Shown here piece after piece: positions 42,000 to 64,000 of a stretch of DNA of 64,000 nucleotides. The notes below the pieces were generated by a model. The model was not told the DNA's origin. It worked only from the letters and a program-made list of their open reading frames with translations, and ran no database searches. The stretch's first letter is position 1. Each line of letters begins with the position of its first letter. The position numbers were made by a program, and so were the translations under genes. The DNA comes from Pyruvatibacter sp. HU-CL02332 (GTDB lineage: Bacteria > Pseudomonadota > Alphaproteobacteria > CGMCC-115125), in contig NZ_BAABWK010000001.1 in assembly GCF_040362765.1 (NCBI RefSeq), positions 672,990 through 736,989 of the forward strand. Reading direction: 5' to 3'.

Positions 42000-43532
42000 A
42001 TGGCGACAGTCCGCCTCATTCTCGGCGACCAGCTCAGCCCCGCCATGTCGTCACTTGCCGACATTGATCCCGACACAGACACGGTCTTGCTCGCTGAGGT
42101 TATGGCCGAGTGCACCTATGTGAAGCACCACAAGAAGAAGATCGTCTTCGTTCTGTCCGCCATGCGCCATTTCGCCCACGAACTGGAAGATCAGGGATAC
42201 AATGTCGATTACGTCAAGCTGACCGACAGGGGCAACACGGGCACCCTGAAGGGCGAAGCTGAACGCGCGCTCAAAAGACACAAGGCAAACCGTCTGGTCG
42301 TAACGCGTTCCGGTGAGTTCCGCCTCGCAGAAGACATGGAAACCTGGTGCACCGACCTGGGTGTCGATGTTGAGCTACGCGACGACGATCGTTTCCTGTG
42401 CAAATTGGACGAGTTCAACGAGTGGGCAGAGGGGCGCAAGGAACTGCGCATGGAGTATTTCTATCGGGAGATGCGCCGCAAGACGTCCTTCCTGATGGAC
42501 CAGAATGAAAAGCCCGAGGGCGGGCAATGGAACTTCGACAAAGACAACCGCAAACCGATCAAAGGTGATCTGGACTTTCCCGGCCCCTCAAAGTTCACCC
42601 CGGACGAGATCACCCAAGAGGTCATTGACCTCGTGAACAGCGAATTTGCTGATCACTTCGGACAGTCGGACGGTTTCACCTTCGCCACCACACGATCGCA
42701 GGCCGAGGACGCGCTACGCCATTTCATCCAGCATGCCCTGCCACGCTTTGGCGACTATCAGGATGCGATGACGGATAAAGACCCGCATCTGTTTCACAGC
42801 GTCATATCAACTTACCTGAATGCGGGACTGCTGGACGCCCACGCTGTATGTGCTGCCGCAGAAAACGCTTACAAAAACGGCGACGCCCCTCTCAATGCCG
42901 TCGAGGGCTTCATCAGGCAGATAATCGGTTGGCGAGAATTTGTCCGCGGCATCTATTGGCGCGAAATGCCCGACTACAAGACACGCAACACCCTGAATGC
43001 CACCACGCCCCTGCCGGAGTTCTTCTGGACCGGCGACACCAAAATGGCGTGCATGGCCCAAGCCATTGGCCAGACCCGTGACCACGCTTACGCCCACCAC
43101 ATTCAACGGCTGATGGTCACCGGTAACTTCGCCCTCATCGCCGGCCTGGACCCTGATGAAGTCAATGACTGGTACATGCGCGTTTACTCAGATGCCTATG
43201 AATGGGTGGAACTGCCCAACACCCACGGCATGGCCATATGGGCCGATGGTGGTGTGGTCGGGTCCAAGCCCTATGCCGCGAGCGGCAAATATATCGACCG
43301 CATGTCTGACCACTGCTCAAACTGCGCCTATAGCGTCAAGGAACAGACAGGCGAAACGGCATGCCCCTTCAATGCGCTGTACTGGGATTTTCTCGCTCGC
43401 CACGAAGAGCGCTTCAAAAAGAACGGTCGGATGGGGCTGGTCATGAAGTCGTTGGAGCGCATGAACTCACAAAAGCTCGACGCCACCCGCCAACGCGCCG
43501 CTGACATACTCAAGAACCTGGACGTGGTTTAG
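42000..43532 (+). CDS. phrB: Iron-sulfur bacterial cryptochrome/photolyase (PhrB-like, 6-4 repair)
   Basis: A 510-residue FeS-BCP protein. The N-terminal alpha/beta domain starts RLILGDQLSP, binding the ribolumazine antenna; the C-terminal helical part binds FAD. Four Cys at 351, 439, 442 and 455 match, shifted by one, the 4Fe-4S ligands C350, C438, C441 and C454 of Agrobacterium PhrB. PhrB repairs (6-4) photoproducts with light. The gene follows an atypical SDR, and its last 23 bp overlap an antisense DUF2256 gene. Confidence 0.92.
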   Translation: MATVRLILGDQLSPAMSSLADIDPDTDTVLLAEVMAECTYVKHHKKKIVFVLSAMRHFAHELEDQGYNVDYVKLTDRGNTGTLKGEAERALKRHKANRLVVTRSGEFRLAEDMETWCTDLGVDVELRDDDRFLCKLDEFNEWAEGRKELRMEYFYREMRRKTSFLMDQNEKPEGGQWNFDKDNRKPIKGDLDFPGPSKFTPDEITQEVIDLVNSEFADHFGQSDGFTFATTRSQAEDALRHFIQHALPRFGDYQDAMTDKDPHLFHSVISTYLNAGLLDAHAVCAAAENAYKNGDAPLNAVEGFIRQIIGWREFVRGIYWREMPDYKTRNTLNATTPLPEFFWTGDTKMACMAQAIGQTRDHAYAHHIQRLMVTGNFALIAGLDPDEVNDWYMRVYSDAYEWVELPNTHGMAIWADGGVVGSKPYAASGKYIDRMSDHCSNCAYSVKEQTGETACPFNALYWDFLARHEERFKKNGRMGLVMKSLERMNSQKLDATRQRAADILKNLDVV

Positions 43533-50396: not shown

Positions 50397-50475
50397 TTCT
50401 GTTGAGTATGTGCTCCGGCCCGTTATCCTCCCGCCCGTCAAAACATTGTTGATAAGTCTGAAGGGAGGGCCCGGT

Positions 50476-50901
50476 ATGCCCGCACCAAAACAGTTTCTAC
50501 CCCAGCCAACGCCGGAGACGGCGCATTTCTGGGAAGGTGCAAAGGCAGGTGAACTTCGCCTGCAAAGATGCAGCGCCTGCAACCATGCCTACTTCCCGCC
50601 GCGCCCCTTCTGTCCCGATTGCGGCTCAAGGGATGTTGCCGTGTTCAAGGCAAGCGGCGACGCCAAGCTCTATTCCTATGTCATCAACCACCGTCCGCGC
50701 CCGGACTTTGGAGAGGAGCCGCATTCCATTGCCGTGGTTGAACTCGCCGAAGGCCCGCGCATGATGACCAACATTGTGGGCTGCCCCCAGACGCCTGAGG
50801 CACTGCAGCTGGACATGCCCCTCAAGGTGACGTTCGAGGATAAGTCTGACGACATCGCCCTGCCAAAATTCACGCCCGCAGATAGCCAGGCGGGAGCATA
50901 A
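50476..50901 (+). CDS. DUF35 OB-fold/zinc-ribbon acyl-CoA-associated protein
   Basis: A 141-residue protein. A helix (ETAHFWEGAKAGELRLQRC) leads into a rubredoxin-like zinc-ribbon with CSACN and CPDCG, then an OB fold. DUF35 proteins pair with thiolases or thiolase-like aldolases and hold the CoA substrate, as in ChsH2-Ltp2. The start follows GGGAGGG. It ends 2 bp before the thiolase gene. Confidence 0.88.
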   Translation: MPAPKQFLPQPTPETAHFWEGAKAGELRLQRCSACNHAYFPPRPFCPDCGSRDVAVFKASGDAKLYSYVINHRPRPDFGEEPHSIAVVELAEGPRMMTNIVGCPQTPEALQLDMPLKVTFEDKSDDIALPKFTPADSQAGA

Positions 50902-52919: not shown

Positions 52920-54263
52920 CTAGCGCTCGGAGAATGCCGTATCGAGGGAGCGGAACACCGGCTTGAGCAGGTAACGCACGATCGACTTCGAGCCGGTTAC
53001 GATTTCCGCATTGACCACCATGCCCGGCAGCACCAGATGCTTGGCAAGCTCGCTACCCACAAAATTGCGGTCCAGCTTGATGGTCGCGTGATAGAAATGC
53101 TCCCCGCGCTCATCCTCAAATGTAGAAGCAGAAATTTTGCTTACACTGCCTTCAAGCGCACCGAAACGCGCAGGATCATAGGTCGTGACACGCACAAGCG
53201 CGCGGTCACCAACAGACACATGACCAATGTCCTTGGGATCAACCTCAACCTGAGCAACAAGCTCATCATCAAGAGGTACGATTTCCAGAACCGGATCGCC
53301 CGGCCGCACAACATCACCAACTGACTTGACCGTCAGGCCTTTCACAATGCCACGCGCAGGTGCACGCAAGGCCAGGCGCTTTACGCGATCCTGGGCTTTT
53401 GCAATCTGATTGTTCACTTCTTCAAGTTCGCCAAGAGCCCGTGCCCGGTCGCGCTTGGCTTCATCAAGCAGTCGGGCATCAATTTCCTTGAGGCTAAGCT
53501 CGGACTCGAGCATGGCCTGCTCCACTTCAGCGACCCGCCCCTGTGTTGTGATCAGTTCACCGCGTGTCTGCTCAACCGCCCGCTGGCTTTCAAGAAAAGC
53601 AATGCGGGACACAAGCCCTTTTTCAAGAAGACCACGACGCATATCCATCTGTTCTTCAAGAATGCTGACTTGTGTCTCAAGGTTTGTGACGCGCCGTTCC
53701 AGCGATGACAGTTCAGCCTTACGCTGCGCGATACGTGAACGCGCAACGCCGCGCTGCTCGGCGCGGGATGCTACCTGCAGTTCCCAGGCTTCCATCTGCT
53801 CGTGTGCAAGATGCCGGAACTCGGGATCTACTTCGAACGCAGGCTCCTGCTCATTCACAAAGGCTTCCTGACGCTCGGCAGTGAGCTCAAGAGACGCGGC
53901 CTTTGCGCGAGCCTGATCAAGATCCGCACCAGCAAGCGCTGGCTGGAACTGAACCAGTGCGTCACCTGCTTCCACAAGTGCGCCATTGCTCACCAGAATG
54001 TCGCCGACAATCCCGCCTTCAAGATGTTTGACTGTCAGCACCGACCCGGCCGGTTCTACCTGGCCCGCAGCAACCGCAAGCTCGCGAACAGTCGTCAAAG
54101 ATGCCCAGACAATAGCCATCCCGACAAACAGACTGACGACCGTAAGAATGAGGCTCGCAACCCGTGGCGCTTTGCCTTCCTCAAGCGCAAGCGGCAACGC
54201 CAGGAGTTTTTCATCCGGCGCACCTAGCATACGGCGCTTAAGTCTATGAAGACCCAGTTTCAC
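52920..54263 (-). CDS. HlyD-family type I secretion adaptor
   Basis: A 447-residue membrane fusion protein, the periplasmic adaptor of a type I secretion system. A single transmembrane helix (about 37-58) is followed by the lipoyl-like half VKHLEGGIVGDILVSNGALV, a long coiled coil (about 125-290) that would reach the TolC channel, the second lipoyl half (RLALRAPARGIVKGL) and the beta-barrel with the C-terminal PGMVVNAEIVTGSKS motif of the family. The start is GTG, two bases after the stop of the ABC gene. No TolC homologue is in the window. Confidence 0.93.
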   Translation of the reverse strand: MKLGLHRLKRRMLGAPDEKLLALPLALEEGKAPRVASLILTVVSLFVGMAIVWASLTTVRELAVAAGQVEPAGSVLTVKHLEGGIVGDILVSNGALVEAGDALVQFQPALAGADLDQARAKAASLELTAERQEAFVNEQEPAFEVDPEFRHLAHEQMEAWELQVASRAEQRGVARSRIAQRKAELSSLERRVTNLETQVSILEEQMDMRRGLLEKGLVSRIAFLESQRAVEQTRGELITTQGRVAEVEQAMLESELSLKEIDARLLDEAKRDRARALGELEEVNNQIAKAQDRVKRLALRAPARGIVKGLTVKSVGDVVRPGDPVLEIVPLDDELVAQVEVDPKDIGHVSVGDRALVRVTTYDPARFGALEGSVSKISASTFEDERGEHFYHATIKLDRNFVGSELAKHLVLPGMVVNAEIVTGSKSIVRYLLKPVFRSLDTAFSER

Positions 54264-54265
54264 GT

Positions 54266-56407
54266 CTAGCCCCCGAACAATTCGGCAAGCACCTGGTCAG
54301 GTGGCCCATCAAGCGCCACACGACCCTGGTCAATTACAACAACACGATCAGCTATCTTCATATGGGAAGGGCGTTGAGTAACCATTAAAACTGTAGCGTT
54401 CCCCTTAAGTTTTGCGAGTTTTGCCCGCAAAAGCTCGTCCCCTTCGTCGTCCAGGTTGTTGGCTGGCTCATCAAGAAGGTAAATGGGCGCGTTCTTGACG
54501 TAGGCACGGGCCAGCGCAAAGCGCTGCTTCATGCCGTCAGCCATCCGCCGCTGGAACTGATCGGTCATCCGCGTCTCAAGCCCCTCAGGGAGCGAGGCCA
54601 CGAATTCGCCAAGGCCCGCATCTTTCAATGCGTTCTGAATGTCGTCTTCGCTGGCTGTGGGCTGCGCCAGGCGCATGTTCTGCGCCAATGTCCCATGGAA
54701 CACAGATGTGCGCTGCGCCACATATCCAATGGACTGACGAAGATCGCCCTTGTCGAGCTGGCGAAGGTCATTGCCGTCAATGCTCACTGCGCCAGCCTGC
54801 GGCATGTAAAGCGCCGAACAGATCTTGAGGATGGTCGATTTGCCAGACCCGCTTGAGCCCGTAATCGCGATCATCTCGCCGGGCTTCACTGCGAAGTCCA
54901 CTCCGACCAGCGCCGGCTCGGCGCGAGGCGTGTATCGGAAGCTCACTTTGCCAAAGGCGATACGGCCCTTGAAGCTGCGATAGAACGATTGCTGCTGCCC
55001 GGGTTCGCGTTCAACCTGAATACGCATCAACTGATTGACCTGGGCCAGCGACTGCTTGACCTGCTCAATGCGGTTGATCCCAAGAAACGCTGCCTGAATA
55101 GGCGCGAGAAGCCGCCAGACCAATGCCATGGTGGCGATCAACGCACCAATGGTCATCATCTCTTCCATGACCATCAGGGTGCCAACGGCCAGCGTCGCAA
55201 CACCTGACGCCATCATCATGGACTGACTCAAGGTCTGAACAATGACACCAAGATGCGACACAGAATGATGAGCCGCCGCCCCCTTGGCTGAGATGTCTCT
55301 GAAACGCGTTTTCCAGTGCAGACCATTGCCTGACTGACGAACCACACGCTGGTTCTCGATGGTTTCAATCAGGAATGCCTGACGCGCAGATCGCGCCTCA
55401 CCCAGCTTGGCAACACGCGACTTGCTGATGGGCCATGTCACAAGCCCAAGAATGGTGAAGCCCACAATGAGCGCCACGGGCACAAACCCAATGACGCCGC
55501 CGATCATGAAGACCGTCACGAGGAACATGAGCAGGAACGGCAGGTCGAGTGCCGAAGCCGCCAGTGGCCCGGTAAAAACCTCGCGGACGGTTTCAAACTG
55601 TTTGAGACGTGCGATCTGTGCACCTATGGGCGCACGCTCTGTCATGCTGACGGGCATGTTGAGCAGCTTCTGAAAGGCAGCAGCCCCAATGAGCATATCG
55701 AGCCGCGCACCGACATAAGCCAGCATCTGCCCGCGCACCAGCCGCAACCCGCCGTCAGCCATGACGGCCAGCAGTACGCCACCCAGGAAGAATGCCAATG
55801 TCTCTGGCGACCGTGTGGCCACCACCTTGTCGTACACGCCCATGATAAAGAGCGGCACGACCACAGCAAAAATGTTGATGACAAATGTCAAGGCAATGGC
55901 CTGCCAGATGACCGCCTTGAACCGTTTGATCACATCGCCCAGCCAATTGCGCTGGGCCGCCTTTTCCTGCTCCTCGAGGGACTCGCTGGCTTTGCGAATA
56001 TAGTACGCCGTGCCGAGTGTCCTGCTGGCAGAAACCTCAACAACATCCCCCAGCACACCGTCGAGCACCGTCAGCATGTCCCCATTGCGCTCGAGCACAA
56101 GGCCAGCCGTTTTGCCGTCCTGCTCAAAGAGACACGGCAAAAGCTCCGCACGCAGATCAGACAGCGTGGTCCGCTCAGGCACAGTCACGTAGTGCAGATT
56201 GGCCAACACCATCCGCAGATCGGCAAGGTCGAGAGAGTCCGCAAAGTGCGGCAGTGCTTCTGCCAAATGACGCGCTTCGCCACGCCAGCCCAGCGCATGA
56301 AGCAGCGGCACCAGACAGGCGCCCGTGGCGGATGTGGGTTGAAAGCTGGATATCGCGCCGCCATGCAACAGATTTTCAAGACGGGGCGCGGACGCATGCG
56401 TACTCAT
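54266..56407 (-). CDS. Type I secretion ABC transporter with C39-like domain, degenerate ATPase motifs
   Basis: A 713-residue ABC half-transporter. Residues 1-130 resemble a C39-like domain (TSATGACLVPLLHALGW) that binds but does not cut substrate. Six helices follow, then the ATPase: Walker A GSSGSGKST is intact and Walker B is LLDEP, but the signature reads RMADGMKQR instead of LSGGQ, and the switch His is replaced in VTQRPSH. With the unlike partner encoded upstream, a heterodimer with one weak ATP site is expected. Its ATG overlaps the upstream stop by four bases. Confidence 0.88.
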   Translation of the reverse strand: MSTHASAPRLENLLHGGAISSFQPTSATGACLVPLLHALGWRGEARHLAEALPHFADSLDLADLRMVLANLHYVTVPERTTLSDLRAELLPCLFEQDGKTAGLVLERNGDMLTVLDGVLGDVVEVSASRTLGTAYYIRKASESLEEQEKAAQRNWLGDVIKRFKAVIWQAIALTFVINIFAVVVPLFIMGVYDKVVATRSPETLAFFLGGVLLAVMADGGLRLVRGQMLAYVGARLDMLIGAAAFQKLLNMPVSMTERAPIGAQIARLKQFETVREVFTGPLAASALDLPFLLMFLVTVFMIGGVIGFVPVALIVGFTILGLVTWPISKSRVAKLGEARSARQAFLIETIENQRVVRQSGNGLHWKTRFRDISAKGAAAHHSVSHLGVIVQTLSQSMMMASGVATLAVGTLMVMEEMMTIGALIATMALVWRLLAPIQAAFLGINRIEQVKQSLAQVNQLMRIQVEREPGQQQSFYRSFKGRIAFGKVSFRYTPRAEPALVGVDFAVKPGEMIAITGSSGSGKSTILKICSALYMPQAGAVSIDGNDLRQLDKGDLRQSIGYVAQRTSVFHGTLAQNMRLAQPTASEDDIQNALKDAGLGEFVASLPEGLETRMTDQFQRRMADGMKQRFALARAYVKNAPIYLLDEPANNLDDEGDELLRAKLAKLKGNATVLMVTQRPSHMKIADRVVVIDQGRVALDGPPDQVLAELFGG

Positions 56408-58284
56408 GCAGCACCTCCTGCCTGAACGGCGGCTTCCTGAGCTGTCTCTTCAGCGCCTTGCGCAGCAGCGTCGTCTGCTTCGATGTCGACTTCAGGGTCA
56501 GTACCCTGCCGTTGCGGTGTAAACTCGTGGTTGAGACGCGCGCGGCCCTTGCGGATGGAAATCACGCGATCAGCAAGCCGAATAAGCGACGGCCTGTGGC
56601 TGACGGCAATGATTGTGATCTTGCCCTTGAGCGCCATCAAAGCCTCGGTCAGCTGCGTATCCGCCTTGCGATCAAGCCCTGCATTGGCTTCATCAAAGAG
56701 AAGAATACGCGCGTCACGGGCAAGCGCGCGGGCAATCACAATACGCTGCATCATCCCGCCGGGCAGTTCGTCAGAGATGCCCTGACTGACCTCGGTGTCA
56801 TACCCCTGCGGCAGCCGATGAATGTCTTCCTCCAGGCCGATCATCCGCGCTGCTTCGCGGGCACGGTCAATGGCATCGCCTTCGCGAAACATTGTGAGAT
56901 TTTCCAGAATGGTGCCTTTGAAGAGTGTCGCCATGGCGGGCATGTAGGCAATGTCCATCGCCAGGTCGTCGCGCCTGGGACCACTCGCTTCATGCTGATC
57001 AATGAAGACCTGGCCATCGTCCGGGGAAAGCTCACCCATAATCATCTTGAGAAGCGTTGATTTGCCGTCGCCTTCCGGACCGGTAATCGCAAGCATTTCA
57101 CCGGGCTTCACGATGAGACTGAACTTGTCGAGAATGGCACTATCCTCGCCATAGCCAAATGACACGTCACGGAAAGACACGTGGCCTTCCAGGTCCGCAA
57201 TATGCTGCGGCTCAGCCTCAGGTGCTGCATCCATTTCCTGAAGCTCTGCGACCTGCGCCCGCGCAACATCAAGGCTCTGGAGCTGCGTCCACACGCTCAT
57301 GCCTTTAAGCAGCGGCTGCAGCGCGCGGCCACCCAGCAAAGTGCAGGCAGCCAGACCACCCACGGACAACGTTCCACCGATCACCAGCAACGCGCCGGCG
57401 GAAACAATCAGGATCATCGTGAGGTTGGAAATGATGCCGCCGATAGTCTGAACGAGATTGCCCAGAACAATGGATTTGTACGCTGACCCGGCGCCCGTGC
57501 TCTGCAGCCGCTCATAGCGGCGCTGCATCTGCGGCTCCATGGCCATGCTCTTGATCGTCTGAATGCCAGACAGCGCTTCGATGATGAAGCTGTAACGACG
57601 GTCATCAAGCTCAGCCCTCTGGGCCTGGCGCTCCTTGAGCGCACGGCCGGCAAAGATGGATACCACAGCCAGCAAAGCAATCATGGCCAGAGGTACAAGT
57701 ACCACCGGCCCACCAATCACAAAAATCAGTCCAAGGAAGATAAACAGGAACGGCAGATCCACCAGCAACAGCCGGGACTGCCCACCGTAAAACTCTCGCA
57801 GCGTGTCAATGGCCTGCAATCGATCGAGATGCACGCCAGGAGGCGCCTTCTCGATCTCCGAAGGACTTGCATAGAGGAAGCGCCCAACAAGCTCTGTTGC
57901 TGTTCGATGTTCAAACTGCGCCGCCGCCCAGCCCACAACATGCGCACGGGCAATTTTGAGAGTCGCATCCAGCACAAGCACAACGGCCAGCCCGCCCAGA
58001 AGCAGCCCGAAAGTGCCAAGCGCTTCGTTAGGCAGAATGCGATCATAAACTTGCAGGATGACCATCGGCAGGCCCAGAGCCAGCACATTGATGGCAAGCG
58101 AAGACAACCAGACAGCACGGCTCAGCCGAGGCGGCACGACACCGCTCTCGCTGTCCTCAGCCCCAAAGCCCATTTTCCGCATAAGACCTTGCTTAGCGGC
58201 AGGCGGGGTATCGGCTGCTTGCTCTTCCACAGACAGAAAATCCAATTCGGGCTCTCTCGATCCCCGATTGGTAAACGCGAACAT
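56404..58284 (-). CDS. Type I secretion ABC transporter, partner half
   Basis: A 626-residue ABC half-transporter, first gene of the exporter operon. After a charged 60-residue N-terminus come six helices (PrtD/LapB-like) and an ATPase with Walker A GPEGDGKST, signature ELPGGMMQR, Walker B LLFDEANAGLD and an intact switch His in VSHRPS. The Q-loop Gln is not seen (IAYMPAMATLF). A long Glu/Ala-rich tail ends the protein. Start ATG 58284 has only a weak ribosome-binding site. Divergent from the giant adhesin. Confidence 0.87.
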   Translation of the reverse strand: MFAFTNRGSREPELDFLSVEEQAADTPPAAKQGLMRKMGFGAEDSESGVVPPRLSRAVWLSSLAINVLALGLPMVILQVYDRILPNEALGTFGLLLGGLAVVLVLDATLKIARAHVVGWAAAQFEHRTATELVGRFLYASPSEIEKAPPGVHLDRLQAIDTLREFYGGQSRLLLVDLPFLFIFLGLIFVIGGPVVLVPLAMIALLAVVSIFAGRALKERQAQRAELDDRRYSFIIEALSGIQTIKSMAMEPQMQRRYERLQSTGAGSAYKSIVLGNLVQTIGGIISNLTMILIVSAGALLVIGGTLSVGGLAACTLLGGRALQPLLKGMSVWTQLQSLDVARAQVAELQEMDAAPEAEPQHIADLEGHVSFRDVSFGYGEDSAILDKFSLIVKPGEMLAITGPEGDGKSTLLKMIMGELSPDDGQVFIDQHEASGPRRDDLAMDIAYMPAMATLFKGTILENLTMFREGDAIDRAREAARMIGLEEDIHRLPQGYDTEVSQGISDELPGGMMQRIVIARALARDARILLFDEANAGLDRKADTQLTEALMALKGKITIIAVSHRPSLIRLADRVISIRKGRARLNHEFTPQRQGTDPEVDIEADDAAAQGAEETAQEAAVQAGGAA

Positions 58285-58573
58285 TTTCAACTTAGTTAAT
58301 TCAAATTTTAATGACCGCGGAATCAGGCCAAAAACACACACCCTGTGAGTTGCGGAAACTAGTAAATACACGCAATAGGCGAGAAATCGTCCCCCCGATC
58401 TTTACCAGTTCCTTAAAGCAAGACTTAACCGGTGTTGTTTCAAACTCTTCTCAACACTGAGGGAAGTTGCGTCCGCCGTTTGCCGAGCGCTTTTCGGCAC
58501 AAGCGCACCTCCTCTCACAAAACGTCACCCCAGAAAGTTTCGGGCGACGGATGTATTGAACAGGAGTTCGAGT
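58285..58573. promoter_or_regulatory. Divergent promoter region of exporter operon and adhesin
   Basis: The 289 bp are AT-richer near the exporter. Seen are TTAA blocks at 58413-58428 with spacing of 8 (near but not equal to a CtrA box) and a small hairpin TGCCGA/TCGGCA at 58481-58499 in the adhesin leader. No clear -35/-10 pair could be fixed. Confidence 0.4.
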
Positions 58574-61500
58574 ATGGCTGACGGTCAGGAAACCAACAGC
58601 ACGCCCACCCCTAAGAAAGACAGCGACGCTGCTGAAGCGTTCCGTCTGGATAGCGCGAACGCGACTGCCCGCGATGAGGCAGTAGAGCGGGCACGCGACT
58701 ATGGGTCTCTCGATGTCCTGCAGGGCGAAAGCGACCCTGCAAACCCGAATATTCATACAGGTACACGTGTCCCCATTGATCCGGGTACATCTGACGGCGT
58801 GGTCGGCGCACCGGATACTGACGCAAGTTTCGTCGGCTCAAGCATCACCGCTGAAGGCACGTCCACCAGCGACAACAATGGCAATCTTGGCAATACGCGC
58901 GGCGTGGCGTCCTTCACCGAAACACCGGTTGAAGCAACAGACGTTCCTCCCGCAGCCACCCTTGAGAACACAGACCTTGATGACACGCTGACCACAGGCA
59001 TTTCGACCCTGGAAGCGCTGACAGATCGCATTGCGCGCCTGGCCGACAACCCGAATGGCGGACAGGATTCTGCCGTCGACCCACAGGCAGCTGCCGCACA
59101 AGATGCGTCCCAGGCGCCGGTCGTACCGGAAAACGATGGTGACGAGGAAATCGTCAACCGCCCGCCAACAGACATTCTGCTCGACAATGCCGGCGTCGTT
59201 GAAAACGCAGCGCCAGGCACAGTGGTGGCGGTTCTCAGCGCAATTGACCCGGATTCAGGTGAAGTCTTCACCTATGAGATCGTCGGCTCATCGGACATGT
59301 TCGAGATTGTCGGCAATGCCGTTCTCGTCAAGGAAGGCGCGGTCCTCGATCATGAGGCATTGGCCTCTGTTGACCTGCCCCTGCGCGTGACGGACAGCTC
59401 AGGCAATGTCTATTTCGAGACGGTGACCCTGGACATCGTGGACGTCAACGAAGTTGCGACCGACATCGCACTGGACGCCACTGTTGTTACAGAGAATGCC
59501 GCCGGCGCTGTCATTGGTACACTTTCCACCACAGACCAGGACGCAGGTGACACGCACACCTATGCTGTGTCTGATGATCGCTTTGAAGTGGTCGGCGGTC
59601 AGCTCAAGCTCAAAGACGGCGTTGCACTTGACCATGAAGCAGCCGACACAATTTCCATCGACGTGACAACCACCGACGCCGGAGGCCTGTCATACACAGA
59701 AACCTTCTCTGTCGTTGTCGATGACATCAATGAAGTCGCGATTGATATTACGCTCGACAACACTAGTGTTGCTGAAAATGCTGCAGGCGCTGTGGTTGGC
59801 ACCCTGTCCACAACAGATCCCGACGCTGGCGACACCCATAGCTATTCTGTGTCTGATGCCCGCTTTGAAGTCGTCGACGGCGAACTTAAGCTCAAGGACG
59901 GCGTCGCGCTCGACCATGAAGCCGGCGACAGCGTGTCCATCGACGTCACGACAACCGATGCAGGCGGCCTGAGCCGTACCGAGACGTTCAACATCTCTGT
60001 TGGGGACGTCAATGAAGTTGCGACGGATATCGCCCTCGACAACACCTCCGTTTCCGAAAACGCAGCTGGCGCCGTGATCGGCAACCTGTCCACCACAGAT
60101 GTCGATGATGGTGACACGCACAGCTATGCGGTTTCTGACGCTCGCTTCGAGGTTGTTGACGGCCAGCTGAAACTGAAAGACGGCGTCGCGCTCGACCATG
60201 AAGCTGGCGACAGCGTGTCCATTGACGTAACAACAACTGATGCTGGTGGCCTGTCGCGTACCGAGACGTTCAACATCTCGGTTGGCGACGTGAATGAAGT
60301 CGCCACAGACATCGCGCTCGACAACACGTCAGTGGCCGAAAACGCGGCTGGCGCAGTAATCGGCAACCTGTCCACGACAGATGTCGATGATGGCGACACT
60401 CACAGCTATGCCGTGTCTGACGCCCGCTTTGAAGTGGTTGATGGTCAGCTGAAGCTCAAGGACGGCGTCTCGCTCGATCATGAAGCAGGCGACAGCGTTG
60501 CCATCGACGTAACGACCACCGACGCAGGTGGCCTGAGCCGCACCGAGACGTTCAACATCTCTGTGGGCGACGTAAATGAAGTCGCCACCGATATCGCGCT
60601 CGACAACGCGTCTGTGGCCGAAAACGCGGCTGGCGCTGTGATCGGCAACCTGTCCACGACAGATGTCGATGATGGCGACACCCACAGCTATGCGGTTTCT
60701 GACGCTCGGTTCGAAGTGGTTGACGGCCAGCTGAAGCTGAAAGACGGCGTCACGCTCGACCATGAAGCTGGCGACAGCGTATCCATCGACGTCACAACCA
60801 CCGATGCAGGCGGTCTGTCACGCACGGAGACATTCAACATCTCCGTTGGCGATGAAAACGAAGTTGCAACAGATATCGCGCTCGACAACACGTCAGTGGC
60901 CGAAAACGCTGCCGGTGCCGTCGTTGGAGCACTTTCCACAACGGACGTAGATGATGGCGATACCCATACCTACACCGTGTCCGACGCGCGCTTCGAGGTT
61001 GTTGACGGAAACCTGAAGCTCAAGGACGGCGTGTCTCTCGATCACGAGACCACCGACAGCGTATCTCTCGATGTCACCACCACAGATGCCGGTGGCCTGA
61101 GCCGTACGGAAACCTTCACCATTTCTGTTGGTGACGTAAACGAAGCGCCAATGGACATTGCGCTGGATGACGCCACATTTGCTCCTGCCGATTTTTCAGG
61201 ACAGGACGGTGACAGCTCCGGCACAAGCATCAGCGACCGCGGCCTTGAAACAGACCAGGCCGTCGTCTCAATTTCATTTACGACAGCTGACAATACGAGC
61301 GGCGCGCAGACCCTGTTTGAGACAGGCGGCAGCGGCACCGGCCTCAACATCGTCATCGAGGACGGTCAGCTCAACGTGTATGCAGGCTCCGGTAACAATC
61401 TCGAACTGAGCGTGCCGATTGACGGCGAGACCTCCTACAACATGGCGCTGGAGCTGGACAAGACGAGCAACACGCTCAAGCTCCTTCTGTCCGATGATCT

Positions 61501-64000
61501 GAGCCCCGGCGAGATGACGGAGGCCAACAGCCTTGCCGCCTCAAAAACCGACTGGACTGATACAGACTGGGACGGTGGCGACGATCTGGGTATTGGTAAT
61601 GCAGCAGGCAGCACCCAGGGTAACACTGGCGGTGACTTCCTTGGCACCATCGACGGGCCGGGCGTTCGCGTATTCTCTGATTCAGATCTCAATGACGTCA
61701 TCCAGCTGGAACAGTCCAACGCGTCCATCAACGAAAATGATGCAGGCGCCGTTGTGGGAGATCTGTCTACAACTGATGTGGATGCTGGTGATACACACAC
61801 CTACACAGTCTCCGACAACCGCTTTGAGGTCGTGGACGGACAGCTGAAGCTCAAGGACGGTGTCTCACTGGACCATGAAACCGAAAGCACGGTTTCCATG
61901 GATGTAACCACCACCGATTCAGGTGGCCTGACACACACCGAAACCTTCACGATTGCAATCGATGATGTGAACGAAGCACCCGTTGATATCACGCTCAGCG
62001 ACCCCGACTACATCCGCGCTGACTACAACGGCCAGGATGGCGACAGCTCCTCCGACAGCATCAGCGATCGGGGTCTTGAAACGGATTCAGCCGTCGTCGC
62101 TGTTTCATTCACAACCTCAGAAGACACCAGCGGCGCGCAGACCCTGTTCGAAACAGGCGGTGGCGGCACCGGCCTCAACGTCGTGATCGAGGATGGTCAG
62201 CTCAACGTCTATGCAGGGTCAGGAAACAACCTGGAACTGAGCGTGCCCATTGACGGCGCCACATCCTACAACCTGGCCCTGGAGCTCGACAAAGCCAGCA
62301 ATACACTGAAACTCCTGCTTTCAGACGAGCTGTCCCCCGGCGACATGACCGAGGCGAATAGCCTGGTTGCATCCAAGACAGACTGGAACGACAGCGATTG
62401 GGACGGTGGCGACACAATGAGTGTCGGCCATACGACCAGCAGCACCCAGGGCAGTGTCGGCGGCGAGTTTCTTGGCACCATTGACGGACCCGGTGTCCGC
62501 GTGTTTGCCAATGCTGATCTGGACTCCATCAAGGCAAATAGTGTCGGCGGTACTGTTGACGAGAATGATGCCGGTGCTGTGATTGGCAAGCTTTCCACAA
62601 CGGATGTGGATGCTGGCGATAGCCACTCATACTCCGTGTCCGACGCTCGCTTTGAAGTTGTCGGTGGCCAGCTGAAGCTGAAAGATGGCGTATCCCTGGA
62701 CCACGAAACAGCTGAAAGCGTTTCCATCGACGTCACAACCACCGACGCTGGCGGCCTGTCGCACACAGAAACATTCACCGTCACCGTCGGCGATGCAAAC
62801 GAAGTTGCAACAGACATCAGCCTCGACAACACCACCGTCGCTGAAAATGCTGCTGGCGCCGTGGTCGGCACCCTGTCCACGACTGATGTAGATGATGGAG
62901 ATACCCATAGCTATGCCGTTTCCGACAACCGCTTTGAGGTCGTTGATGGCGAACTGAAGCTGAAAGACGGCGTGTCCCTGGACCATGAAGCAGGCGACAG
63001 CGTTTCCATCGACGTCACCACCACCGACGCGGGCGGCCTGAGCCGCACTGAGACATTCAACATCTCTGTGGGCGACCTGAATGAAGTCGCCACAGACATT
63101 GCGCTCGACAACACCTCCGTTGCTGAAAACGCGGCGGGTGCCGTGATCGGTAACCTGTCAACGACAGATGTCGATGATGGAGACACCCATAGCTATGCAG
63201 TGTCCGACAACCGGTTTGAAGTTGTTGATGGCCAGCTGAAGCTGAAAGACGGTGTCGCACTGGACCACGAGTCTGGCGACAGCGTGTCCATCAACGTCAC
63301 CACGACGGATGCTGGCGGCCTGTCACGCACAGAGACATTCAACATCTCTGTTGGCGACGAAAACGAAGTCGCAACAGACATTGCCTTGGACAATACATCC
63401 GTCGCCGAGAATGCGGCGGGTGCTGTCGTTGGTGCACTTTCCACAACAGACGTGGATGATGGCGACACCCATACGTACAGCGTGTCCGACGCGCGCTTCG
63501 AGGTTGTCGACGGCAATCTGAAGCTCAAGGACGGCGTATCGCTGGACCATGAAGCTGGCGACAGCATTTCCCTCGATGTCACCACTACAGATGCAGGTGG
63601 TCTGTCCCGGACAGAGAGCTTTGACATTGCAGTTGGCGACGTCAACGAAGTTGCGACGGACATTGCACTCGATAATACATCCGTTGCAGAGAACGCAGCC
63701 GGCGCTGTTGTTGGGACCCTGTCCACAACTGACGCAGACGATGGCGACACGCACAGCTATGCCGTGTCCGACAATCGCTTTGAGGTCGTGGATGGCGAAC
63801 TGAAGCTCAAGGACGGTGTCGCGCTCGACCACGAAGCTGGCGACAGCATCTCCATCGACGTGACAACCACGGATGCAGGTGGCCTGAGCCGCACGGAGAC
63901 GTTCAACATTTCCGTGGGTGACGCAAACGAAGTAGCCACCGACATTGCGTTGGACAATACGTCCGTTGCTGAAAACGCCGCTGGCGCTGTGGTCGGCACC
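58574..64000 (+). CDS. Giant cadherin-repeat surface adhesin, 5' part (runs off window)
   Basis: An open frame of 1809 codons with no stop before the window edge. AGGAG lies seven bases before the ATG. Residues 1-195 are low-complexity and acidic (MADGQETNSTPTPKK...), with no cleavable signal, as expected for a type I substrate whose signal is at the C-terminus. From 59165 on, at least 14 cadherin-like repeats follow, with DxNE linker and LDHE motifs that bind calcium. Two LamG-like modules interrupt the array. It faces a type I exporter operon, so it is most likely its substrate, a LapA/BapA-like biofilm adhesin. Confidence 0.88.
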   Translation, partial: MADGQETNSTPTPKKDSDAAEAFRLDSANATARDEAVERARDYGSLDVLQGESDPANPNIHTGTRVPIDPGTSDGVVGAPDTDASFVGSSITAEGTSTSDNNGNLGNTRGVASFTETPVEATDVPPAATLENTDLDDTLTTGISTLEALTDRIARLADNPNGGQDSAVDPQAAAAQDASQAPVVPENDGDEEIVNRPPTDILLDNAGVVENAAPGTVVAVLSAIDPDSGEVFTYEIVGSSDMFEIVGNAVLVKEGAVLDHEALASVDLPLRVTDSSGNVYFETVTLDIVDVNEVATDIALDATVVTENAAGAVIGTLSTTDQDAGDTHTYAVSDDRFEVVGGQLKLKDGVALDHEAADTISIDVTTTDAGGLSYTETFSVVVDDINEVAIDITLDNTSVAENAAGAVVGTLSTTDPDAGDTHSYSVSDARFEVVDGELKLKDGVALDHEAGDSVSIDVTTTDAGGLSRTETFNISVGDVNEVATDIALDNTSVSENAAGAVIGNLSTTDVDDGDTHSYAVSDARFEVVDGQLKLKDGVALDHEAGDSVSIDVTTTDAGGLSRTETFNISVGDVNEVATDIALDNTSVAENAAGAVIGNLSTTDVDDGDTHSYAVSDARFEVVDGQLKLKDGVSLDHEAGDSVAIDVTTTDAGGLSRTETFNISVGDVNEVATDIALDNASVAENAAGAVIGNLSTTDVDDGDTHSYAVSDARFEVVDGQLKLKDGVTLDHEAGDSVSIDVTTTDAGGLSRTETFNISVGDENEVATDIALDNTSVAENAAGAVVGALSTTDVDDGDTHTYTVSDARFEVVDGNLKLKDGVSLDHETTDSVSLDVTTTDAGGLSRTETFTISVGDVNEAPMDIALDDATFAPADFSGQDGDSSGTSISDRGLETDQAVVSISFTTADNTSGAQTLFETGGSGTGLNIVIEDGQLNVYAGSGNNLELSVPIDGETSYNMALELDKTSNTLKLLLSDDLSPGEMTEANSLAASKTDWTDTDWDGGDDLGIGNAAGSTQGNTGGDFLGTIDGPGVRVFSDSDLNDVIQLEQSNASINENDAGAVVGDLSTTDVDAGDTHTYTVSDNRFEVVDGQLKLKDGVSLDHETESTVSMDVTTTDSGGLTHTETFTIAIDDVNEAPVDITLSDPDYIRADYNGQDGDSSSDSISDRGLETDSAVVAVSFTTSEDTSGAQTLFETGGGGTGLNVVIEDGQLNVYAGSGNNLELSVPIDGATSYNLALELDKASNTLKLLLSDELSPGDMTEANSLVASKTDWNDSDWDGGDTMSVGHTTSSTQGSVGGEFLGTIDGPGVRVFANADLDSIKANSVGGTVDENDAGAVIGKLSTTDVDAGDSHSYSVSDARFEVVGGQLKLKDGVSLDHETAESVSIDVTTTDAGGLSHTETFTVTVGDANEVATDISLDNTTVAENAAGAVVGTLSTTDVDDGDTHSYAVSDNRFEVVDGELKLKDGVSLDHEAGDSVSIDVTTTDAGGLSRTETFNISVGDLNEVATDIALDNTSVAENAAGAVIGNLSTTDVDDGDTHSYAVSDNRFEVVDGQLKLKDGVALDHESGDSVSINVTTTDAGGLSRTETFNISVGDENEVATDIALDNTSVAENAAGAVVGALSTTDVDDGDTHTYSVSDARFEVVDGNLKLKDGVSLDHEAGDSISLDVTTTDAGGLSRTESFDIAVGDVNEVATDIALDNTSVAENAAGAVVGTLSTTDADDGDTHSYAVSDNRFEVVDGELKLKDGVALDHEAGDSISIDVTTTDAGGLSRTETFNISVGDANEVATDIALDNTSVAENAAGAVVGT
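61148..61696 (+). other. First LamG-like module inside the adhesin
   Basis: 183 residues without cadherin motifs, replacing a repeat boundary. It contains SISDRGLETDQAVVSISFTT, LFETGGSGTGLNIVIEDGQL and LELDKTSNTLKLLLSD, the jelly-roll pattern of laminin-G/concanavalin-like lectin domains. Likely sugar or protein binding. Confidence 0.65.
61979..62524 (+). other. Second LamG-like module, near-copy of the first
   Basis: 182 residues, clearly duplicated from the first module: RADYNGQDGDSS, SISDRGLETDSAVVAVSFTT, LFETGGGGTGLNVVIEDGQL. It is followed by one cadherin-like repeat, so the duplicated unit is LamG plus cadherin (about 830 bp). Confidence 0.65.

What the first reader, a model, noticed from the sequence alone, without database searches (positions are those of the whole stretch)
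54266..58284. Asymmetric ABC pair with one degenerate ATP site
The 713-residue half lacks a normal signature (RMADGMKQR) and the switch His (Gln instead), while the 626-residue half has LPGGM and an intact His but no clear Q-loop Gln. Type I exporters are usually homodimers. The overlap ATGA between genes suggests equal synthesis, so a heterodimer with one catalytic and one structural site is likely.
Basis: partly seen in the sequence, partly recalled or inferred. Interest (0 to 1): 0.55.

Follow-up and report, generated by a model that had tools for sequence, protein, structure and literature searches.

The report
Two-part secretion pump with unequal halves
Two neighbouring genes encode the two different halves of what is very likely one ATP-driven protein-secretion pump, probably for a giant adhesive surface protein; in this pump family one ATP site is usually more damaged than the other, and here both carry changes.

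Summary
The genes encode the ABC part of a type I secretion system (T1SS): B (626 aa, no C39-like domain), A (713 aa, with one), then HlyD, divergent from a 3,983-aa cadherin/RTX protein, the likely substrate. The heterodimer is well supported: in 46 of 46 distinct alphaproteobacterial loci examined B is followed by A, and B-A fusions occur in 18 same-phylum loci, two alphaproteobacterial loci and four Azospirillum plasmids. The asymmetry is family-wide: the site made of A's core and B's signature is intact in 64 of 79 pairs, the other site in 6; in 26 later pairs from one order, 9 and 2, with neither intact in 17. So the 713 half, which looks worse, supplies the usually better-kept core. In the window's genus both sites deviate (A: switch His to Gln; B: Q-loop Gln to Ala), so 'one catalytic, one structural' fits the family better than this pair. 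Heterodimeric exporters with a degenerate site (TmrAB, called a T1SS in one review) and two-ABC T1SS (RtxB/RtxE) are known. The fused or overlapping, single-C39-domain form beside HlyD and a giant adhesin is a new variant of a known kind.

The parts
56404..58284 (-). B: 626-aa ABC half exporter without the N-terminal C39-like domain; first gene of the operon
   Evidence: ORF; PF00664 and PF00005; TIGR03375 410 bits, below its cut-off of 693
54266..56407 (-). A: 713-aa ABC half exporter with a C39-like domain (CLD)
   Evidence: ORF; TIGR03375 510 bits, below cut-off; AlphaFold2 pLDDT 80.6, pTM 0.58; best PDB match HlyB 8dck_A over 692 columns
56404..56407 (-). ATGA start/stop overlap of B and A
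   Evidence: sequence; a 4-base start/stop overlap in 52 of 63 separate pairs
52920..54263 (-). HlyD-type membrane fusion protein, third gene of the operon
   Evidence: TIGR01843 346 bits over cut-off 208.65
58556..64000 (+). N-terminal part of a divergent 3,983-aa cadherin/RTX protein, the likely substrate; runs on past the window (L107 546-12497)
   Evidence: open frame; Cadherin 1.7e-82 and HemolysinCabind 8.2e-26 near the C terminus
54521..54547 (-). A signature region RMADGMKQR (A residues 621-629)
54374..54376 (-). A switch position, Gln678 in place of His
56752..56766 (-). B signature LPGGM (B residues 507-511)
56935..56937 (-). B Q-loop position, Ala450 in place of Gln
56596..56598 (-). 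B switch His563, intact

Best explanation
A and B together form one heterodimeric ABC exporter that works with the neighbouring HlyD-type adaptor and an unlinked TolC-type outer-membrane channel to secrete the divergently encoded 3,983-aa cadherin/RTX protein. A carries the only C39-like domain of the dimer, inferred to bind substrate and HlyD; B lacks it. ATP site 1 (A's Walker A/B, Q-loop and H-loop with B's signature) is the likely ancestral catalytic site. Site 2 (B's core with A's signature) is degenerate in most relatives and probably binds ATP mainly to hold the halves together. In the window's genus site 1 has changed too (His to Gln), so it is probably slower or altered but still active. 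Shown: genes, motifs, operon, fusions, family-wide asymmetry, substrate domains. Inferred: dimer assembly, which site hydrolyses ATP, substrate identity, choice of outer-membrane channel.
For: B is followed by A on the same strand in 46 of 46 distinct alphaproteobacterial loci examined, and HlyD is present in 41 of 46; the other five end at or near a contig edge. Natural B-A fusions of 1292-1386 aa in 18 same-phylum loci, in L094 and L328, and as one annotated CDS on four Azospirillum plasmid records titled complete, beside HlyD and a giant divergent Ig-like protein. AlphaFold2 of a fusion (1200 residues, pLDDT 73.5, pTM 0.57) finds full-length P-glycoprotein first, top five hits TM 0.66-0.68 over about 1,230 columns. 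Site 1 intact 64 of 79, site 2 intact 6 of 79; site 2 worse in 66, equal 10, site 1 worse 3; collapsed at 60% identity 32 / 7 / 3 of 42. Later 26 pairs of one order: site 2 worse 15, equal 10, site 1 worse 1. A keeps Walker B Glu in 77 of 79, B in 64; switch His A 69, B 29. dN/dS window against L069 about 0.02 (A) and 0.05 (B). Substrate has cadherin and RTX domains. Gln at the switch position occurs in 2 of 30 LssB-type controls whose other scored residues are canonical, and in ABCC1 Gln or Asn there kept transport (PMC7756269, passage).
Against: No direct evidence that the halves bind each other or that either hydrolyses ATP. In the window's genus both sites score one core defect each, so site 1 is not plainly better. 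HlyB H662A has <0.1% ATPase (PMC9751043 and PMC6222333, passages), though Ala is harsher than Gln. B's signature has Pro instead of Ser in 37 of 43 alphaproteobacterial pairs, so even site 1 is not textbook. Site 1 is the worse one in 3 of 79 pairs and in several of the 19 follow-up pairs. A substrate-like neighbour was seen in 38 of 63 loci with a rough composition test; 24 had none in the flanks fetched and one had short flanks.
Confidence: 0.69

Rival explanations
1. Heterodimer with reversed or ambiguous polarity in the window's genus: B's core, which keeps both Glu and His, does the hydrolysis, and A's His-less core has become the structural site.
For: B keeps Walker A Lys, Walker B Glu and switch His while A has lost His. 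In the related group around L241/L242 A has lost Lys or Glu in many members while B often keeps Glu and, in the L241 part, His.
Against: The window's B has lost the Q-loop Gln and would use A's altered signature MADGM. The relatives L002, L071, L072 and L073 keep A's Lys, Gln, Glu and His intact. In the L241 part B's Walker A Lys is mostly Arg, which speaks against B as the catalytic half there.
Confidence: 0.2
2. Two independent homodimeric T1SS exporters encoded side by side, each working alone.
For: Each half has a full transmembrane and nucleotide-binding domain.
Against: 46 of 46 adjacency, natural fusions in several groups, one HlyD in the window's operon, and complementary losses: an A homodimer would lack a good signature, a B homodimer in many relatives would lack Glu or His.
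Confidence: 0.04
3. Decaying, non-functional transporter.
For: Motif losses in both halves; one relative (L085) has a broken B gene and one fused gene (L210) is broken.
Against: Strong purifying selection, all three genes open in three full-length genus loci (window, L069, L070), open reading frames across many lineages with similar losses.
Confidence: 0.04

Closest known systems
HlyB/HlyD T1SS (and LssB/LapB-type exporters, TIGR03375)
   Same: Best sequence family for both halves, C39-like domain plus ABC fold in A (8dck is the top fold match), HlyD next door, RTX-bearing neighbour.
   Different: HlyB works as dimers of one protein, each chain with a C39-like domain; here two different halves, one such domain per dimer, non-canonical sites; both halves score below the family cut-off. 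[quoted passage not shown]
MARTX four-component T1SS with RtxB and RtxE
   Same: Two related ABC proteins, both needed for secretion, proposed heterodimer (PMC3034196 and PMC4316617, passages).
   Different: There the two ABC genes flank the adaptor gene (PMC4316617 passage); here B and A are adjacent, overlapping or fused, with the adaptor last; the neighbour here is a cadherin/RTX protein. The RtxB/RtxE sequences were not compared.
TmrAB of Thermus thermophilus
   Same: Heterodimer with one degenerate site; a review calls it the organism's only T1SS (PMC8277102, passages). Among the fold matches of A.
   Different: Described there as multidrug resistance proteins that can replace the TAP peptide transporter; that passage does not mention a C39-like domain, gene fusion or a giant adhesin. 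No direct sequence comparison was made.
Other heterodimeric or full-length exporters with a degenerate site (TM287/288, BmrCD; human full transporters)
   Same: Two unequal halves, composite sites, loss concentrated in one site. In the fusions the weak site is the one with NBD1's core and NBD2's signature; in human full-length proteins the degenerate site is always NBS1, with NBD2's signature changed (PMC7756269, section 7).
   Different: Not T1SS parts paired with HlyD and a giant adhesin (recalled); here some lineages have replaced key residues in both sites.

Membership tests
Type I secretion system ABC exporter (LssB/LapB type, TIGR03375) | Score over the curated cut-off (693 bits) | tested here: not met
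   A 510 bits, B 410 bits; best family for both, but below cut-off
Type I secretion system ABC exporter (LssB/LapB type, TIGR03375) | Half-exporter fold with C39-like domain | tested here: met
   A: PF00664 + PF00005, fold match to HlyB over 692 columns. B lacks the N-terminal domain.
Type I secretion system (in general) | HlyD-type adaptor in the operon | tested here: met
   TIGR01843 346 bits over cut-off 208.65; 41 of 46 relatives, the other five at or near contig ends
Type I secretion system (in general) | TolC-type outer-membrane channel in the genome | tested here: met
   Two ~500-aa frames with four PF02321 matches, not linked to the operon
Type I secretion system (in general) | Large RTX-type substrate encoded nearby | tested here: met
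   3,983-aa divergent protein with cadherin and RTX domains; secretion itself not shown
Heterodimeric ABC exporter with degenerate site | Two different halves that act together | tested here: met
   By inference from adjacency, natural fusions and two sequence groups; physical interaction not testable here
Heterodimeric ABC exporter with degenerate site | One consensus and one degenerate composite site | tested here: inconclusive
   A family tendency (64 of 79 against 6 of 79; 9 of 26 against 2 of 26); in the window each site has one core change
MARTX-type four-component T1SS (RtxB/RtxE) | Two ABC genes flanking the adaptor gene, MARTX substrate | tested here: not met
   Order here is B-A-HlyD; the neighbour has cadherin and RTX Pfam domains
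MARTX-type four-component T1SS (RtxB/RtxE) | Sequence clade of RtxB and RtxE | not tested
   Those sequences were deliberately not fetched

The most novel reading that the evidence does not exclude
ATPase erosion in this T1SS family goes beyond one site. In the window's genus neither site is canonical, and in related lineages (L241, L311-L313, L315, L317 have the Walker A Lys replaced in both halves; L310, L320, L324, L328 the Walker B Glu in both) the exporter may hardly hydrolyse ATP, acting as a nucleotide-gated channel whose export is driven by something else, such as the proton motive force or folding of the secreted repeats outside the cell. At the same time the single-C39-domain heterodimer and its fused forms fix genetically an asymmetry that HlyB homodimers only adopt structurally.
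Probability: 0.2. Interest if true: 0.8.

Novelty: new variant of a known kind. Interest (0 to 1): 0.53.

Why it matters
[quoted passage not shown] A widespread family in which the two protomers are separate genes, or one fused gene with a single C39-like domain, lets each protomer's role (substrate and HlyD contact, ATP hydrolysis, clamping) be tested by single-gene changes, which a homodimer does not allow. Lineages with key ATPase residues replaced in both halves make it testable how much ATP hydrolysis giant-adhesin export really needs.

Tried and rejected
Local mutation only: rejected for the altered A signature and B Q-loop (shared by relatives), kept for A's His-to-Gln. Besides the window's genus, Gln at that position is found in L094, L321, L322, part of the L241 group and five pairs. 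On a tree of 100 A rows and 6 controls the His/Gln label needs 5 changes, one of them in a control.

Two homodimers and pseudogene decay: rejected, see rivals.

Alignment A3 (fused plus separate halves) was not used: the low identity of the B rows suggested they had aligned to the A half; A4 (fusions only) was used for the prediction.

Left out of the pair counts: L226, L244 and L246 (A-like single genes); L329 (ordinary LssB-type gene); L085 (B broken) and L210 (fusion broken); L041, L075 and L095 (cut by contig ends); L001 and L003 (duplicates of L041 and L073); L290, L292, L298 and L306 (incomplete). L010-L033 (weak matches) and 18 of the 58 places were not fetched or examined as loci of their own; two of those 18 are the A genes beside B in L076 and L079.

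Placement of L241/L242 near the window: the tree tool warned of long branches; the separate, larger trees of A and of B keep the grouping, but I treat it with caution.

Literature: of the searches (open-licence PMC only), most papers were seen as listings. I recognised no paper describing this fused, single-C39-domain T1SS family, but PMC8277102 (passages) does call the degenerate-site heterodimer TmrAB a T1SS. The RtxB/RtxE primary paper is not held.
Full report
What is there. On the minus strand lie, in order of transcription, B (626 aa, 58284..56404), A (713 aa, 56407..54266) and a HlyD-type adaptor (54263..52920); B and A overlap by ATGA. A and B both match the T1SS exporter family TIGR03375 best, below its cut-off; HlyD passes its own cut-off. 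A has a C39-like N-terminal domain, B does not: the AlphaFold2 model of A (pLDDT 80.6, pTM 0.58) matches HlyB 8dck_A over 692 columns. Divergent from B is a 3,983-aa frame that starts at 58556 and ends beyond the window, with cadherin repeats and a C-terminal RTX block. The genome also has two unlinked TolC-type genes and a separate PrtD-type exporter over its family cut-off. The nearest named relative found is a Candidatus Phaeomarinobacter MAG (L001, 91%).

Motifs. ATP sites are composite: one half's Walker A, Walker B, Q-loop and H-loop with the other half's signature (PMC7756269, passage). Site 1 is A's core with B's signature; site 2 is B's core with A's signature. In the window site 1 has A's switch Gln, and site 2 has B's Q-loop Ala with A's altered signature; both Walker B Glu are present. 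In my scoring a site counts as intact if the core has Lys, Gln, Glu and His and the partner signature its second Gly; other signature positions are not scored.

Family. In Alphaproteobacteria, 54 of 385 genomes matched B at E <= 1e-80, at 58 places; the weaker places look like ordinary exporters, and I fetched the best 40 places. Together with the loci this gives 46 distinct loci beside the window. In 46 of 46 B is followed by A on the same strand; HlyD is found in 41, and the other five end at or near a contig edge. B is about 560-640 aa in most loci and A about 700-760 aa. A start/stop overlap of four bases is present in 52 of 63 separate pairs, some from outside the class. On unrooted trees all B rows fall on one side of one branch and all A rows on one side of another, apart from 57 control exporters; with more rows the same.

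Fusions. In a phylum-wide search (214 of 398 genomes with a match at a loose threshold, many of them ordinary exporters) I fetched 20 loci chosen for long open frames; 18 hold an intact B-A fusion, one (L210) is broken and one (L226) is not a fusion. L094 and L328 are fusions in Alphaproteobacteria. Four Azospirillum plasmid records titled complete carry one annotated CDS of 1354-1378 aa, without internal stop, that covers both halves, next to HlyD and a giant divergent Ig-like protein. A fusion model (pLDDT 73.5, pTM 0.57, first 92 residues left off) has full-length P-glycoprotein structures as its best matches, the top five with TM 0.66-0.68; many lower-ranked, mostly inward-facing ones score 0.37-0.55. 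Fusion is the strongest evidence that A and B work as one transporter.

Asymmetry. In 79 complete pairs, collected without regard to motifs (though 18 were chosen for long frames), site 1 is intact in 64 and site 2 in 6; site 2 has more losses in 66, equal in 10, site 1 more in 3. Collapsing relatives at 60% identity gives 32, 7 and 3 of 42. Of 57 controls none lost Lys, Q-loop Gln, Glu or the second Gly, and three had a non-His switch residue; the LssB-type controls were the 30 best-scoring, and three of the 27 PrtD-type ones lie under the family cut-off. In all 18 same-phylum fusions site 1 is intact and B's switch His is lost. The four Azospirillum fusions keep A's Lys, Gln, Glu and His and B's second signature Gly; their B core has Q-loop Glu and switch Ser. 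In human full-length proteins the degenerate site is always NBS1 (PMC7756269, section 7); in the B-A fusions the weak site is likewise the one with NBD1's core.

A check that goes partly against this. When re-checking I scored the 30 best-ranked loci that one search had returned from the order of the odd pair L242; 26 could be scored. Site 1 is intact in 9, site 2 in 2, neither in 17; site 2 is worse in 15, equal in 10, site 1 worse in 1. The direction of the asymmetry holds, but an intact site 1 is not the rule in that order. One of the 26 (L291) is the same locus as L328.

The window's own pair. It is one of 10 of 79 equal cases. A's His-to-Gln is found in the three full-length loci of the genus and not in relatives L002, L071, L072 and L073. 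Gln there may be tolerated: two of 30 LssB-type controls have it with the other scored residues canonical, and ABCC1 with Gln or Asn at that position kept transport (PMC7756269, passage). Against this, HlyB H662A has under 0.1% activity. Both genes are under strong purifying selection (window against L069: dN/dS about 0.02 for A and 0.05 for B).

Beyond one site. Neither site is intact in 14 of the 79 and 17 of the 26. A follow-up set of 19 pairs was fetched because it comes from the orders of the odd pairs L241 and L242 and, in the second order, mostly from the lower-ranked matches, so it is not a fair sample: 19 of 19 have neither site intact. In 98 pairs (79 plus 19), six have the Walker A Lys replaced in both halves (in B by Arg, which may still bind ATP) and four the Walker B Glu in both. 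These genes remain open, L241 against L311 shows dN about 0.21 and dS about 1.3 for A, and L241 still sits beside a divergent cadherin-repeat protein. On larger trees these lineages group with the window's clade; some branches are long, so the grouping is provisional.

Mechanism, with status. Shown: operon, motifs, fusions, asymmetry, substrate domains. Inferred: A and B form one exporter; A's C39-like domain contacts substrate and HlyD, as in HlyB (PMC11026475, passages); site 1 hydrolyses ATP and site 2 mainly clamps; HlyD and a TolC homologue complete the channel. [quoted passage not shown]

Novelty. Heterodimeric exporters with a degenerate site are well known; one, TmrAB, is called a T1SS in a review (PMC8277102, passages), and RtxB/RtxE is a T1SS with two ABC proteins that may form a heterodimer (PMC3034196, PMC4316617, passages). 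I found no description of this fused, single-C39-domain family beside HlyD and giant adhesins in the searches, which cover open-licence papers only. Taking TmrAB into account I set interest a little lower than I first had it.

Noticed in passing
L100, L101, L103-L106: In these six pairs, from genomes of about 1.4-2.4 Mb, A has an inserted residue after the Walker B Glu (such as DELP..LN instead of DEP..LD), and B has Asn or His at the Walker B Glu position and Asp or Asn at the switch position: a distinct, strongly eroded subtype.
   Followed up: partly
L207, L210-L217, L221-L223: In 12 of the 19 fused loci (one of them broken) two HlyD-type adaptor genes are seen, one on each side of the fusion.
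   Followed up: no
L085 6325-8019; L210 6435-10426: A broken B gene in one relative and a broken fused gene in another; the neighbouring transporter genes seen are open.
   Followed up: no
L247, L330, L331, L332: Azospirillum plasmids carry the fused exporter annotated only as 'ATP-binding cassette domain-containing protein', beside divergent Ig-like proteins encoded by genes of about 14-16.5 kb.
   Followed up: partly
LssB-type controls L152 and L158; PrtD-type control L121: T1SS exporters with Gln or Asn at the switch-His position and the other scored residues canonical.
   Followed up: no
L299-L301, L304: Pairs with Asp in place of B's Walker A Lys and Asp and Gln at A's Q-loop and switch positions: another lineage with both sites changed.
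   Followed up: no
window 42000-43532; 50410-50901: A deoxyribodipyrimidine photolyase-related protein (PF04244), and a ChsH2-type zinc-ribbon/OB protein just upstream of a thiolase-like gene (the last name recalled); ordinary.
   Followed up: no
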